Origin: Thermoplasmata archaeon
GTDB lineage: Archaea > Thermoplasmatota > Thermoplasmata > Lutacidiplasmatales > UBA184
Length of the DNA stretch: 51,477 nucleotides
Direction: 5' to 3'
Assembly: GCA_021823345.1 (NCBI GenBank)
Contig: JAKAOF010000009.1
Location: forward strand, 1-51,477
Every line of letters begins with the position of its first letter. The stretch's first letter is position 1. Both the position numbers and the translations under genes were made by a program. The notes under the pieces are model-generated. The model saw only the letters and a list, made by a program, of their open reading frames with translations. It was not told where the DNA came from and searched no databases. Positions 47,274 to 51,319 of the stretch are shown one piece after another.

Positions 47274-48548
47274 ATGGCGAGCGCATCCGCCGAAGCAAAG
47301 ACGACTTTCGAGGATTTTGACCAAGCCAAGCGGATGCAAGGGGAGATCACCAAGAACTACTTCCAGCGACTCCTCACCGCCCAGGCGAACGGACAGAAGG
47401 TGGGGTACGGCTTCGTGATGGCCAACCCCATCGAGTTCTTCAACGTGTTCGACATCGTCCCGCTCTACCCGGAGGTGACCTCGCTCAACATCTCCTACCG
47501 GGGAGGTGCGCCCCCCCTCATCGCCCTCAGCGAGGAGGTGGGGTACTCGACCGACGCCTGCGGCTACGTGAAGATGGGCGTGGCGGCCGCCACGGACAAG
47601 ACCTCCACCGCGATCGGGGTGCTCCCCAAGCCGGACCTCCTCTACCTCACCTATTCCGGGTGCCAGATCTACATCCACTGGTGGGAACAGCTCCACTACC
47701 AGACCGGCGCTCCCATCCTCACCGTGGACGTCCCCTACGTCCGGGAGTACGACGGCCATGTCGATGCACACGATATCCGCTACGTGGCGGCGCAGCTCGA
47801 GGAGTCCATCCCTGTCCTGGAGAAGTTCACCGGGAAGCGCTTCGACGAGAACCGGTTCAAGGAAGTGATGCGCCTCTCCTCCAAGGCCTGGGAGCTCTGG
47901 GGCAAGGTCCTCGAGATGGGCAAGATGCGACCTTCCCCGCTCGACGCCTACTTCGAGTCCATCTACTACATGGCCCCCATCACGCTCATCCGGGGAACGC
48001 AGGAGTGCGTCGACTTCTACGCCTTCCTGCTGGAGGAGCTCAAGGAGCGGGCGAGCCACGGGGTCGGCCCGACCGCCCGCGAGGACTACCGGCTCGTCTT
48101 CGAGGGAGTCCCTAACTATCCCTTCTTCAAGAAGTTCTGGAACCTCTTCCGGCAGAACAACGCCCGCGGCGTGGTCTCGACCTATCCGAAGGTCGCCGGC
48201 ATGATCGACACCGGTTCCTTCCACCTCAACACCGATCACCCCTTCGAGAGCATCGCGGAGTACATGATCCATGCCTACTGCAACTGGAACATGCCCCTCC
48301 GCACGCAGCTCCTGGAGAAGTACGTCCGGGATTACCACGCCGACGGGGTCGTCATCCACTCCATCAAGAGCTGCCGGTCCTTCTCCATGGGTGAGGGGGA
48401 CATGCGGGAGTACCTTGCGAAGGAGAAGGACATCCCCACGCTCCTCATCGAGTCCGATCACGTGGACCCGCGGTACTACAGCGAGGCCCAGATCAAGAAC
48501 CGGGTGGACGCGTTCTTTGAGACGCTCGCCCTGCGGAGGGCCGCGTAA
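47274..48548 (+). CDS. bcrB: Benzoyl-CoA reductase class I subunit, BcrB/BzdO-like
   Basis: 2-hydroxyacyl-CoA dehydratase/BCR family: VGYGFVMANPIEFFNVFDIVPLYPEV, SGCQIYIHWWEQLHYQTGAPILTVDVPY, DGVVIHSIKSCRSFSMGEGDMREYL, TLLIESDHVDPRYYSEAQIKNRVDAFFE. Confidence 0.8.
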   Translation: MASASAEAKTTFEDFDQAKRMQGEITKNYFQRLLTAQANGQKVGYGFVMANPIEFFNVFDIVPLYPEVTSLNISYRGGAPPLIALSEEVGYSTDACGYVKMGVAAATDKTSTAIGVLPKPDLLYLTYSGCQIYIHWWEQLHYQTGAPILTVDVPYVREYDGHVDAHDIRYVAAQLEESIPVLEKFTGKRFDENRFKEVMRLSSKAWELWGKVLEMGKMRPSPLDAYFESIYYMAPITLIRGTQECVDFYAFLLEELKERASHGVGPTAREDYRLVFEGVPNYPFFKKFWNLFRQNNARGVVSTYPKVAGMIDTGSFHLNTDHPFESIAEYMIHAYCNWNMPLRTQLLEKYVRDYHADGVVIHSIKSCRSFSMGEGDMREYLAKEKDIPTLLIESDHVDPRYYSEAQIKNRVDAFFETLALRRAA

Positions 48549-48549
48549 G

Positions 48550-49371
48550 ATGCAGGCCTCACGCTCCTACTACGCAGGGATCGACGCGGGCTCGACCTAC
48601 ACCAAGGGGGCGCTCGTGGACGACCGCGGGAACATCGTCGGTACCGCCGTGGACATGACCGGGGTGAACATCGTGACGGCCTCCAAGAAGATCTACGGCC
48701 TCTTGCTCGACAAGACCGGGATGAACGAGAGCGACGTCGCCTACGTCGTGGGGACCGGGTACGGCCGCTACCGGATCACCTTCGGTAACACCCAGGTGAC
48801 GGAGATCAGTTGCCATGCGAAGGGCGCCCACCTCCTCTATCCCAATACCCACACCGTGCTCGACATGGGAGGGCAGGACACGAAAGCCATCCGGGTCAAC
48901 GCCCACGGGGAGGTCATGGACTTCTCCATGAACGACAAGTGTGCCGCGGGTACCGGCCGCTTCATCGAGGGCTCGGCACGCGTCCTCGGGCTCAAGCTCC
49001 AGGAGGTCGGGGAACTCTCGCTCCGTTCCACGAACCCGGTCAAGATCTCGAGCACCTGTGCCGTGTTCGCCGAGACGGAGACCCAGGAGCAGCTCGCCTG
49101 GGGCCACTCGCTCGAGGACGTGCTCTACGGCATCCACGCCTCCATGGCGACCCGGGCGATCGGACTCCTTCGGCGGGTCGGCATCGAACCGGAGATCACC
49201 TTCACCGGCGGCGTCTCGATGAACCCCGGCATGATCCGCGCGCTCGAGGAGCAGTTGGGACAGCGCCTCAACCACGACGGGAAGACCATGTACTGCGGGG
49301 CGATCGGGGCCGCGATCTTCGCCCTCGAACGAGCGAGTAGTGCCACCCACGAAGGAGGTTCCGCCGCATGA
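48550..49371 (+). CDS. bcrD: BadF/BadG/BcrA/BcrD-family ATPase subunit of benzoyl-CoA reductase (BcrD-like)
   Basis: GIDAGSTYTKGALVDD, VVGTGYGRYRITFGN, LDMGGQDTKAIRVN, NDKCAAGTGRFIEG, SSTCAVFAETE. Start ATG 48550. Confidence 0.8.
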   Translation: MQASRSYYAGIDAGSTYTKGALVDDRGNIVGTAVDMTGVNIVTASKKIYGLLLDKTGMNESDVAYVVGTGYGRYRITFGNTQVTEISCHAKGAHLLYPNTHTVLDMGGQDTKAIRVNAHGEVMDFSMNDKCAAGTGRFIEGSARVLGLKLQEVGELSLRSTNPVKISSTCAVFAETETQEQLAWGHSLEDVLYGIHASMATRAIGLLRRVGIEPEITFTGGVSMNPGMIRALEEQLGQRLNHDGKTMYCGAIGAAIFALERASSATHEGGSAA

Positions 49372-50165
49372 TCACCGTCGGGATGGACGTCGGGACCCGG
49401 ACGACACGTGCCGTCGTGCTGGAGGAGGGGCAGCGGCTGCGGGCGAAGATACGGTTGCCCACGGGGTACAACTTCGCGCAGTCGATCCAGGGGGCGTACG
49501 ACGCCGTCCTGGCAGCCGCCCAGGTGACCCCCGCGGAGGTGGACTACCTCGCCGCCACCGGATTCGGACGCTACCGCGTCGAGAAGCGCGACCTCAGCAT
49601 CACGGACATCACGGCTGCGGCCCGAGGGGCCCGGTTCTTCTTCCCGCGCACCCGCTCGGTCCTCGACGTGGGCGCCGGGAATGCTCGGGCGTCCAAGATC
49701 AACGAGAAGGGCAAGGTGCTCAAGTTCCGTTCGACCGAGAAATGTGCGGCCGGTGGTGGAGGGTTCCTGGAGCGCATCGCGTTCTACTCCCAGATCGGGC
49801 TGGACCGCCTGGGCGCGACCGCCCTCGGGGCCCACAACCCGGTCGCGATCTCGACCGTCTGTTCCGTCCTTGCCGAGTCCGAGGTGATCAACCTCATCAC
49901 CCAGGAGGTTCCGCTCGAGGACATCCTCATGGGGGCGCACCAGTCGGTCGTCGGCCGGGTGCTCTTGACGCTGAAGCAGGTGGGGATCGAACAGGAGGTC
50001 ACCCTGACCGGTGGTCTCGTGGAGAACCCGGCCTTCGTGCAGGCCTTCGAGCAGAAGATGGGCGGGAAGCTCAACTCTTCCGGGGACCTCTACTACGCCG
50101 CGGCCGTGGGGGCAGCGTACCTCGGACACCAGCGGCTTCTCAAGAAGCGGGGAGAGGCAGCATGA
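49368..50165 (+). CDS. bcrA: BadF/BadG/BcrA/BcrD-family ATPase subunit of benzoyl-CoA reductase (BcrA-like)
   Basis: GMDVGTRTTRAVVLEEG, ATGFGRYRVEKRD, LDVGAGNARASKIN, EKCAAGGGGFLERIA, STVCSVLAESEVI; 4-bp ATGA overlaps with both neighbours. Confidence 0.8.
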   Translation: MITVGMDVGTRTTRAVVLEEGQRLRAKIRLPTGYNFAQSIQGAYDAVLAAAQVTPAEVDYLAATGFGRYRVEKRDLSITDITAAARGARFFFPRTRSVLDVGAGNARASKINEKGKVLKFRSTEKCAAGGGGFLERIAFYSQIGLDRLGATALGAHNPVAISTVCSVLAESEVINLITQEVPLEDILMGAHQSVVGRVLLTLKQVGIEQEVTLTGGLVENPAFVQAFEQKMGGKLNSSGDLYYAAAVGAAYLGHQRLLKKRGEAA

Positions 50166-51319
50166 TCGACTCCGTGCAGGACTTCGCCCAGGTCACCGAC
50201 GACTCCTATTCCGCCTACGACTCGGTCACGCGCTGGAAGCAGAAGGAGGGGCGGCCAGCGGTCGGCTACTTCCCGGTCTATTTCCCGCAGGAGATCGCCC
50301 ACGCCTTGGGCTACCTCCCGGTCGGGCTGCTCGGTGCGTCAGGACGGGTGGGGCTCGACATGGCGACGGCCCACACCCAGAGCTTCGTCTGCTCGATCAG
50401 CCGGAGCGTCTTCCAGCTCGGGCTCCAGGGCAACCTCGACATGATGGACGTCCTCGTCTTCTCCAACATCTGCGACGTGGCCCGCAACCTCTCCGGGATC
50501 ACCCAGCGGAACCGCCCCGGGCGGTCCGTCGAGTACCTGCACTACCCGATCAACAACTCCTCCGCCCACGCGGTCAAGTACCTCCGGGAGGAGTACGCCC
50601 GGCTCGCGCGGCGGATGGCCGAGGTCGCCGGGACCCCGGCCCTTTCGACGGAGAACCTCCGGACCAGCGTCGAGCTCTTCAACCAAAAGCGCGCACTACA
50701 GCTCCGGCTCGTGCATTTGCGCCAAGAATCCCCGTGGCTCATCCCGTACACCGAGTTCTACTCCGTCCTGCGCGCGGGTTCGATCCTTCCGGTCGAACGG
50801 TACGTGGAGCGGTTGGAAGGCTACGTCCGGGAACAGGAAGCCCGGAGCTCCCGCCCGAAGGATGGCGTGAGGGTCCTCGTGTTGGGCAACTTCTGCGAGC
50901 AGCCCCCGATCCAGCTCATGAAGGCGATCGAGGAGGCCGGATGCTTCATCGTTCAGGACGAGGCGTTGGTGGGCGAGCGCTGGCTGGGCCACCTGGACAC
51001 GGACAAGTCCGAGGACCTGCTCTCGACGATCGCCCAGGGGTACGTGCAGAACCTCGATCCGATGACCGTTCGCTTCCACCCCTCGGTGAACAAGCAGGAG
51101 GACCTGATGCGCCGGGTCCGCGAGCTCCGGCTCGAAGGGGTCATCTTCGCCACTCCCAAGTTCTGCGAGCCCGCGCTCTACGACTACATGATCGGGAAAC
51201 CGGCGCTCGACAAGGCCGCGATCCCCTACCTGCACATCGAGTACGAGGAGTCCATGTCGAGCTTCGAGAACGCCCGCACGATGGTGGAGACCTTCACCGA
51301 GTCGATCCTGTTCGACTGA
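50162..51319 (+). CDS. bcrC: Benzoyl-CoA reductase class I subunit, BcrC/BzdN-like
   Basis: GRPAVGYFPVYFPQEIAHALGYLPVGLLGASG, FVCSISRSVFQLGLQG, VLVLGNFCEQPPIQLMKAIEEAGCFIVQDE, EGVIFATPKFCEPALYDYMIGKPALDKAAIPYLHIEYEESMSSFENARTMVETF. Start ATG 50162 inside ORF 49340..51319. Confidence 0.8.
   Translation: MIDSVQDFAQVTDDSYSAYDSVTRWKQKEGRPAVGYFPVYFPQEIAHALGYLPVGLLGASGRVGLDMATAHTQSFVCSISRSVFQLGLQGNLDMMDVLVFSNICDVARNLSGITQRNRPGRSVEYLHYPINNSSAHAVKYLREEYARLARRMAEVAGTPALSTENLRTSVELFNQKRALQLRLVHLRQESPWLIPYTEFYSVLRAGSILPVERYVERLEGYVREQEARSSRPKDGVRVLVLGNFCEQPPIQLMKAIEEAGCFIVQDEALVGERWLGHLDTDKSEDLLSTIAQGYVQNLDPMTVRFHPSVNKQEDLMRRVRELRLEGVIFATPKFCEPALYDYMIGKPALDKAAIPYLHIEYEESMSSFENARTMVETFTESILFD

What the first reader, a model, noticed from the sequence alone, without database searches (positions are those of the whole stretch)
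47274..51319. Class I (ATP-dependent) benzoyl-CoA reductase operon in an archaeal, probably Thermoplasmata-like, genome
Four tightly coupled genes (two 4-bp ATGA overlaps, one 1-bp gap) encode two FeS/HgdB-type subunits and two different BadF/BcrA/D-type ATPases. Two distinct ATPases plus two distinct catalytic subunits is the BcrCBAD/BzdNOPQ layout. 2-hydroxyacyl-CoA dehydratases normally use one homodimeric activator. Class I BCR is best known from facultative anaerobic bacteria, with few archaeal examples (Ferroglobus-type archaeoglobi, from memory). A Thermoplasmata-like host would extend dearomatisation to another archaeal lineage. Gene order here is B-like, ATPase, ATPase, C-like, unlike either bacterial order I recall.
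Basis: partly seen in the sequence, partly recalled or inferred. Interest (0 to 1): 0.85.

Follow-up and report, generated by a model that had tools for sequence, protein, structure and literature searches.

The report
Archaeal benzoyl-CoA reductase operon
A Thermoplasmata archaeon carries a complete, ATP-driven oxygen-free enzyme system for breaking aromatic rings, of a distinct archaeal type that it shares with Nitrososphaerota and that sits back to back with the genes that prepare 4-hydroxybenzoate for it; the kind of enzyme is known, and its presence in this archaeal class has been reported before.

Summary
[quoted passage not shown] Phylogeny, cluster cysteines, motifs and two paralogous ATPases place it with BCR/methyl-BCR and not with 2-hydroxyacyl-CoA dehydratases. 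A Dch-Had-Oah ring-cleavage operon lies on another contig of the same genome, and in a relative all of these genes lie in one stretch. The enzyme belongs to an archaeal-only clade (Thermoplasmata of one genus, Nitrososphaerales, Caldarchaeum, Geothermarchaeota), distinct from the BCR, BZD and MBR types. The Thermoplasmata copies nest among Nitrososphaerota, which suggests transfer between phyla. Novelty is moderate: class I bcr genes were reported in Thermoplasmata MAGs in 2019 and 2022, although the 2022 group's copy found here is of a different lineage. Substrate and activity are inferred, not shown. No convincing aryl-CoA ligase was found in this 94%-complete genome.

The parts
47274..48548 (+). 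BcrB/MbdO-type catalytic subunit (active-site [4Fe-4S], benzoyl-CoA site), 424 aa
   Evidence: TIGR02260 BcrB 315 bits vs HadB 204; best PDB hit MbdO 9g87; C96/C130/C367, E67, Y98, K365-S366-C367; tree
48550..49371 (+). BcrA/MbdQ-type activating ATPase, intact GGQD motif, cluster cysteines C131 and C170, 273 aa
   Evidence: TIGR00241 244 bits, TIGR02259 BcrA 197 bits; best PDB hit MbdQ, 304 bits; motifs
49368..50165 (+). BcrD-type second ATPase, GAGN in place of GGQD, cluster cysteines C126 and C165, 265 aa
   Evidence: TIGR02261 BcrD 148 bits vs BcrA 104; PDB MbdQ 192 and MbdP 181 bits; BcrD-type motif shared with the second ATPase of other class I operons
50162..51319 (+). BcrC/MbdN-type FeS subunit, 385 aa
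   Evidence: TIGR02263 BcrC 255 bits vs HadC 175; best PDB hit MbdN 226 bits; C77/C104/C335 plus BCR/MBR-specific C245
47146..47273 (.). 128-nt divergent intergenic region, 47% GC in a 67% GC contig; contains GGTTATTTAGTGCTT...AAGCATAAATAACC inverted repeat with TATA-like boxes on both strands
   Evidence: TATA-like boxes at 47225 (+) and 47253 (-); 'ATAAATAA' also precedes bcrB in L019 and L020. Function inferred only
46441..47145 (-). MocA-like molybdenum cofactor cytidylyltransferase (cofactor maturation)
   Evidence: TIGR03310 100 bits, PF12804 101 bits
45674..46459 (-). XdhC-type maturation factor
   Evidence: PF13478/PF02625; NF045664 171 bits
45222..45677 (-). 4-hydroxybenzoyl-CoA reductase gamma subunit (2x[2Fe-2S]), 151 aa
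   Evidence: TIGR03193 178 bits, top hit
42907..45225 (-). 4-hydroxybenzoyl-CoA reductase alpha subunit (molybdenum), 772 aa
   Evidence: TIGR03194 803 bits vs XdhA 509; PDB 1rm6 596 bits vs next 298; the only such gene in the genome
41831..42910 (-). 4-hydroxybenzoyl-CoA reductase beta subunit (FAD, extra 4-Cys loop C120/C136/C144/C153), 359 aa
   Evidence: TIGR03195 304 bits vs XdhB 111; cysteines
41052..41783 (-). HTH_10 (Bat-type) transcriptional regulator downstream of the molybdenum operon; possible regulator
   Evidence: PF04967 58 bits; HTH_10 genes near bcr also in L019, L020 and L024; role inferred

Best explanation
[quoted passage not shown] Two paralogous ATPases (BcrA-type and BcrD-type) bind a [4Fe-4S] cluster between them through C131/C170 and C126/C165. 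They take electrons from reduced ferredoxin and, on ATP hydrolysis, push them one at a time into the BcrC/BcrB FeS dimer. BcrB holds benzoyl-CoA beside a three-cysteine [4Fe-4S] cluster (C96, C130, C367) and reduces the ring to cyclohexa-1,5-diene-1-carbonyl-CoA. The divergently transcribed molybdenum enzyme removes the hydroxyl group of 4-hydroxybenzoyl-CoA and so supplies benzoyl-CoA. The Dch-Had-Oah operon on contig C44 hydrates, oxidises and opens the ring. Shown by sequence: gene content, family placement, cluster ligands, linkage in relatives. Inferred: the substrate, the reaction, the ferredoxin donor (two 2-oxoacid:ferredoxin oxidoreductase alpha-subunit matches in the genome; such genes sit directly upstream of bcrB in L021 and L022), and operation under anoxia in a host that also has a haem-copper oxidase.
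For: Family scores favour BCR over HAD for both catalytic subunits. A positive control: the MBR catalytic chain of the solved structure 9g87, MbdO, scores only 221 bits on the same BcrB model, below the window's 315. PDB best hits for all four subunits are chains of the methyl-BCR MbdONQP; AlphaFold model pLDDT 89, best fold match 9g87. Tree: inside BCR/MBR, archaeal clade 100/99, HAD outside; concatenated four-subunit tree agrees. Residues: three cluster Cys, E67, Y98; aromatic Y133 as in BCR/MBR (Val in HadB); FVxxN, KSC and ESD motifs as in BCR/MBR. BcrC C245 present in all BCR/MBR examined and absent from HadC and BzdN. Second ATPase carries the BcrD-type GA motif. Divergent 4-hydroxybenzoyl-CoA reductase. 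Dch, Had, Oah: each best matches its dearomatisation family (TIGR03189 174 bits, TIGR03201 240, TIGR03200 144), overlapping genes in one operon on C44. L019 joins Hcr-XdhC-MocA, BcrBADC and Dch-Had-Oah in one stretch. L024 has a PaaK-type CoA ligase next to the operon.
Against: All four BCR subunits and all three Hcr subunits score below NCBIfam's equivalog cut-offs. The Dch and Oah matches exceed other crotonase families only narrowly (174 vs 155; 144 vs 138 bits). The overall fold does not separate BCR from HadB (TM 0.88-0.89 for both). The best candidate CoA ligases are weak: the top one is a long-chain acyl-CoA ligase type, and no PaaK-type ligase was found, so the entry step is missing or unrecognised in a genome that is 93.6% complete. 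The second ATPase lacks GGQD, so how many ATPs are used is open. No expression or activity data.
Confidence: 0.93

Rival explanations
1. A class I reductase of the same architecture whose natural substrate is another aryl-CoA (for example a methyl-, hydroxy- or phenylpropanoid-derived benzoyl-CoA) rather than benzoyl-CoA itself.
For: The clade is separate from the Bcr, Bzd and Mbr types; the closest solved structure is a 3-methylbenzoyl-CoA reductase; position 133 is Tyr, where MbdO has Phe and BzdO His; one relative of the same genus has both this type and the second type.
Against: The divergent 4-hydroxybenzoyl-CoA reductase produces benzoyl-CoA and the linked Dch-Had-Oah genes are the unsubstituted-ring route.
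Confidence: 0.15
2. A 2-hydroxyacyl-CoA dehydratase (HgdABC/HadBCI type) with a duplicated activator, used in amino-acid fermentation.
For: Same superfamily and fold; HadB has TM 0.88-0.93 to the model; the HadB and HadC models match at 204 and 175 bits.
Against: Tree, motifs and BCR-specific cysteine all side with BCR; two divergent ATPases with BcrA/BcrD signatures rather than one homodimeric activator; linked to Hcr and Dch-Had-Oah.
Confidence: 0.03
3. A double-cubane reductase or other BCR-like enzyme of unrelated function (DCCP/DCCP-R type).
For: The double-cubane family NF040772 matches at 80 and 126 bits.
Against: The scores are far below those to BcrB/BcrC; DCCP is a weaker fold match (TM 0.71-0.75); the double-cubane cysteines C36, C263 and C293 of BzdN are absent from BcrC.
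Confidence: 0.02

Closest known systems
3-Methylbenzoyl-CoA reductase MbdONQP of Thauera chlorobenzoica (MBR type; PDB 9g87, 9gai)
   Same: Best solved relative of all four subunits (224, 226 and 304 bits for three of them, 192/181 for the BcrD-type); same two catalytic FeS subunits plus two ATPases; KSC, ESD and FVxxN motifs; C245 of the C subunit.
   Different: Only about 31% identical in the catalytic subunit; falls outside the archaeal clade on a long branch; second ATPase MbdP keeps GGQ where the window has GAG.
BcrCBAD-type class I benzoyl-CoA reductase (Thauera/Rhodopseudomonas type; TIGR02259/02260/02261/02263)
   Same: Subunit set, BcrB and BcrC are the best named families; BcrD-type GA motif in the second ATPase; neighbours Dch, Had, Oah, Hcr.
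   Different: Below the equivalog cut-offs, while anchors L083/L085/L095 reach 650-717 bits; order B-A-D-C instead of C-B-A-D; short BcrA without the N-terminal extension modelled in TIGR02259 (matched only from position 229 of 432).
BzdNOPQ (Aromatoleum sp. CIB; PDB 8s02)
   Same: Three-cysteine active-site cluster, Glu and Tyr positions (PMC11971306).
   Different: His131 of BzdO is Tyr here; the six-cysteine double-cubane set of BzdN is not present.
Second BCR lineage of Thermoplasmata and bacteria (for example L035 from a sediment MAG, L040, L070)
   Same: Class I BCR with Dch and Had adjacent; it is the type held by most of the sampled genomes in the window's own family.
   Different: About 44% identical in BcrB; separate clade; Oah-B-A-D-C-Dch-Had or C-B-A-D order; not beside Hcr in the Thermoplasmata loci examined.
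4-Hydroxybenzoyl-CoA reductase HcrABC (PDB 1rm6)
   Same: Divergent neighbour operon: all three subunits best match it, including the beta-subunit four-cysteine loop.
   Different: Scores below equivalog cut-offs; accompanied by XdhC and MocA maturation genes in the same operon.

Membership tests
[quoted passage not shown]
   TIGR02260 315 bits and TIGR02263 255 bits are the best families; tree. Scores are under the equivalog cut-offs, but so is the methyl-BCR catalytic chain of PDB 9g87
[quoted passage not shown]
   C131/C170 and C126/C165; GGQD in one, GA-type motif in the other, as in other class I operons
[quoted passage not shown]
   C96, C130, C367, Y98 align with BzdO C95, C128, C380, Y97; E67 taken as Glu65 from the YPE motif because the BzdO N-terminus was not in the alignment (PMC11971306)
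[quoted passage not shown]
   Operon on contig C44; near the reductase in L018-L022
[quoted passage not shown]
   Needs enzyme assay
2-Hydroxyacyl-CoA dehydratase | Subunits branch with HgdAB/HadBC | tested here: not met
   Outside HAD with support
2-Hydroxyacyl-CoA dehydratase | Single homodimeric activator | tested here: not met
   Two divergent ATPases
BZD type of class I BCR | Double-cubane cysteines C36/73/100/263/293/327 in the N subunit and His131 in the O subunit | tested here: not met
   Three of six cysteines absent; Tyr133 instead of His
MBR type of class I BCR | Branches inside the Mbd clade | tested here: not met
   Separate clade; MBR is at most a sister on a long branch (95/89, 88)
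BCR (Thauera) type of class I BCR | Scores above the TIGR02260 cut-off and long BcrA | tested here: not met
   315 of 486 bits; 273-aa BcrA
4-Hydroxybenzoyl-CoA reductase (neighbour operon) | Mo alpha, FAD beta with extra [4Fe-4S] cysteine loop, 2[2Fe-2S] gamma | tested here: met
   equivalog cut-offs not reached (803 of 995, 304 of 405, 178 of 258 bits)

The most novel reading that the evidence does not exclude
The operon defines a fourth subtype of class I benzoyl-CoA reductase, confined to archaea, with a fixed B-A-D-C gene order, a GAG(N/S)-type second ATPase and Tyr at the catalytic-histidine position of BzdO. It appears to have moved between Nitrososphaerota and one Thermoplasmata genus, possibly together with the Dch-Had-Oah and 4-hydroxybenzoyl-CoA reductase genes, giving a respiring archaeon (haem-copper oxidase present) an ATP-dependent dearomatisation route.
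Probability: 0.55. Interest if true: 0.6.

Novelty: new variant of a known kind. Interest (0 to 1): 0.5.

Why it matters
Class I benzoyl-CoA reductases perform a biological Birch reduction and have been studied almost only in Proteobacteria. A separate archaeal lineage, seen in Thermoplasmata, Nitrososphaerales, Caldarchaeum and Geothermarchaeota, offers new enzymes (some perhaps thermostable, from Caldarchaeum-type hosts) for structure and mechanism. It tests whether the His next to the cluster water in BzdO is needed, since the position is Tyr or Phe in the BCR and MBR types. It also extends anaerobic aromatic degradation in archaea with a linked 4-hydroxybenzoate branch and a candidate transfer between phyla. 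It is not the first report of these genes in Thermoplasmata.

Tried and rejected
Plasmid collection: only distant HAD-like relatives, of which two were kept as outgroups. HAD and DCCP readings were considered and rejected (see rivals). Benzoate-CoA ligase: TIGR02262 gave a long-chain acyl-CoA ligase type, and PaaK was absent, so no ligase is claimed. Structure as a discriminator: fold alone does not separate BCR from HadB. A link of contig C44 to the end of the window contig was considered and not claimed, because other genes lie between the C44 contig start and dch. Searches for papers on BCR in Caldarchaeum, Nitrososphaeria or acidophilic archaea found none. A paper on the MBR structure (9g87/9gai) was not found in the library. 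The second prediction job, the representative-protein search and the viral collection were not used because they could not change the verdict.
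Full report
OBSERVATION. Codon position GC of 0.89-0.93 at position 3 shows they are coding. Pfam gives HGD-D, BcrAD_BadFG, BcrAD_BadFG, HGD-D. The window is contig C64 of a 1.86-Mb, 73-contig, 93.6%-complete genome, and the two PF06050 genes are its only ones. The contig ends 158 nt after the last gene.

WHICH ENZYME. NCBIfam ranks BcrB first for the first gene (315 bits; HadB 204; BzdO 126) and BcrC first for the fourth (255 bits; HadC 175; BzdN 84). 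These are below the equivalog cut-offs, but the MBR catalytic chains MbdO and MbdN of the solved structure 9g87 score only 221 and 225 bits on the same models, so the cut-offs mark the Thauera-like subtype and not the activity. Bona fide Bcr-type anchors in the tree reach 650-717 bits. All four proteins have chains of the 3-methylbenzoyl-CoA reductase of Thauera chlorobenzoica as closest solved relatives (species). An AlphaFold model of BcrB from the alignment A1 (pLDDT 89) matches MbdO best (E 2.3e-32, 31% identity) but matches HadB almost as well by TM-score, so fold alone is not decisive.

RESIDUES. The BzdNO structure paper (PMC11971306) gives the ligands. Window BcrB has C96, C130 and C367 for the catalytic cluster, Y98 for the thioester-binding Tyr97 and E67 for the acid Glu65 (the last by the YPE motif, because the BzdO N-terminus was not in the alignment). 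His131 of BzdO, described as alanine in HadB by that paper, is Tyr133 here; all BCR- and MBR-type sequences shown in the alignment have Phe or Tyr there, and HadB has Val at the aligned column. The motifs FVxxN (N51), K365-S366-C367 and E393-S394-D395 follow BCR/MBR and not HAD. BcrC keeps C77, C104 and C335 plus C245, which is present in every BCR/MBR sequence examined and absent from HadC and BzdN; it lacks the Bzd double-cubane cysteines C36, C263 and C293. The two ATPases are paralogues, not copies: g2 has GGQD, g3 has GAGN, and the same split (GGQD against GA-something) runs through most other class I operons compared, so g2 is BcrA-type and g3 BcrD-type. Both keep the two cluster cysteines.

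PHYLOGENY. In a 67-row BcrB tree the window falls in a 19-row clade (100/99) of Thermoplasmata, Nitrososphaerales, Caldarchaeum and Geothermarchaeota sequences, apart from a Bcr-type clade, a mixed bacterial/Thermoplasmata group, the MBR group, BzdO and HAD. A concatenated tree of all four subunits recovers the same clade at 100. MBR appears as sister (95/89; 88), but treekit warns of long branches there. One member titled 'bacterium' (L021) lies in a genome with the archaeal ribosomal protein S6e, so the clade is archaeal as far as tested. Inside it the Thermoplasmata sit next to Nitrososphaerales (100/100), and holding the non-Thermoplasmata members together is disfavoured (p-AU 0.031). That suggests transfer between phyla, with the caution that the group was named after seeing the first tree.

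HOST. Genomes with the same coordinates as L018 and L020, both titled 'Thermoplasmata archaeon', are reported as same genus as the window genome. In a 395-genome sample of the phylum, 18 have a strong match: the three sampled members of the window's genus have this type, 13 other genomes of the same family have the second, about 44%-identical type, and only two lie outside the family. One genome of the genus has both types. The host has a COX1 haem-copper oxidase gene, which fits the statement in PMC11971306 that class I enzymes are common in facultative anaerobes.

NEIGHBOURS. Divergent from bcrB, 128 nt away, runs an operon MocA - XdhC - gamma - alpha - beta of a 4-hydroxybenzoyl-CoA reductase (41831-47145, -). 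The alpha subunit scores 803 bits on TIGR03194 against 509 for XdhA, and 596 bits on PDB 1rm6 against 298 for the next structure; beta scores 304 on TIGR03195 against 111 for XdhB. The beta subunit has exactly four cysteines, C120, C136, C144 and C153, the spacing I recall for the extra [4Fe-4S] loop of the Thauera enzyme (recalled, not tested). On contig C44 three overlapping genes match cyclohexadiene-carbonyl-CoA hydratase, 6-hydroxycyclohexene-carbonyl-CoA dehydrogenase and 6-oxocyclohexene-carbonyl-CoA hydrolase families first, with a MaoC-like gene at the operon's upstream end. The hydratase and hydrolase lead by small margins; their linkage to bcr in relatives is what makes the call: in L019 Hcr-XdhC-MocA, BcrB-A-D-C and Dch-Had-Oah lie in one 15-kb stretch, and L018, L020, L021 and L022 also hold Dch and Had near bcr. 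L021 and L022 have 2-oxoacid:ferredoxin oxidoreductase genes directly upstream, and L024 has a PaaK-like ligase and ABC transporter genes downstream (transporters by sequence inspection). The window genome has two matches to such an oxidoreductase. No convincing aryl-CoA ligase was found in it.

GENE ORDER. The archaeal clade has B-A-D-C throughout (L018-L025, L074). Most bacterial relatives examined have C-B-A-D. The second Thermoplasmata type has mostly Oah-B-A-D-C-Dch-Had, while the archaeal loci L026, L035 and L062 have C-B-A-D.

NOVELTY. Class I bcr genes with oah, dch and had were reported in Thermoplasmata and Bathyarchaeota MAGs in 2019 (PMC6472368), class I bcr genes in 'Ca. Yaplasmales' in 2022 (PMC9239135), in Hermodarchaeota (PMC8163825) and in Ferroglobus placidus (PMC6500515). 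L035, whose isolate name carries a core code of the 2022 study (SY.153; my inference), belongs to the second lineage and not to this one. I found no paper on this archaeal clade in the library searched, which holds open-licence papers only. Hence: a new variant of a known kind. Ferroglobus, Bathyarchaeia and Asgard sequences could not be fetched by name, so whether any of them falls inside the clade is open, and the fourth-subtype claim is held at 0.55.

Noticed in passing
window 21541-23447 and 36109-38478: hemC-hemE and a ferrochelatase + HemY-like protoporphyrinogen oxidase pair: haem synthesis through protoporphyrin in a Thermoplasmata genome, matching the COX1 gene elsewhere.
   Followed up: partly
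window 39415-41019: Formate-tetrahydrofolate ligase (607 bits to PF01268) next to the molybdenum operon.
   Followed up: no
window 47223-47257: Nearly perfect inverted repeat GGTTATTTAGTGCTT / AAGCATAAATAACC in the AT-rich divergent region, overlapping TATA-like boxes about 20 nt before the bcrB ATG; possible shared operator or leaderless promoter pair.
   Followed up: partly
L018/L070 (genome DBS1-1.bin134): One genome holds both BCR lineages, this clade (84%) and the second Thermoplasmata type (43%), suggesting two different aryl-CoA substrates.
   Followed up: partly
L040-L076 (Thermoplasmata loci): A second, well supported Thermoplasmata BCR clade with operon Oah-BcrB-A-D-C-Dch-Had, frequent in the window's family.
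   Followed up: partly
L021:14048-16765 and L022:14134-16809: A roughly 900-aa molybdopterin oxidoreductase (best NCBIfam match only 167 bits, PhsA) conserved between bcrC and the Hcr-like genes in Nitrososphaerota-type genomes; function unknown.
   Followed up: no
L021 (record titled 'bacterium isolate clean1925'): Record title says bacterium, but the genome has archaeal ribosomal protein S6e and its operon groups with Nitrososphaerales; the title is probably only a placeholder.
   Followed up: yes
window 25331-28501 and 32637-36017: Two very large proteins (1056 and 1126 aa), one with PKD domains and one with beta-propeller repeats, probably surface proteins.
   Followed up: no
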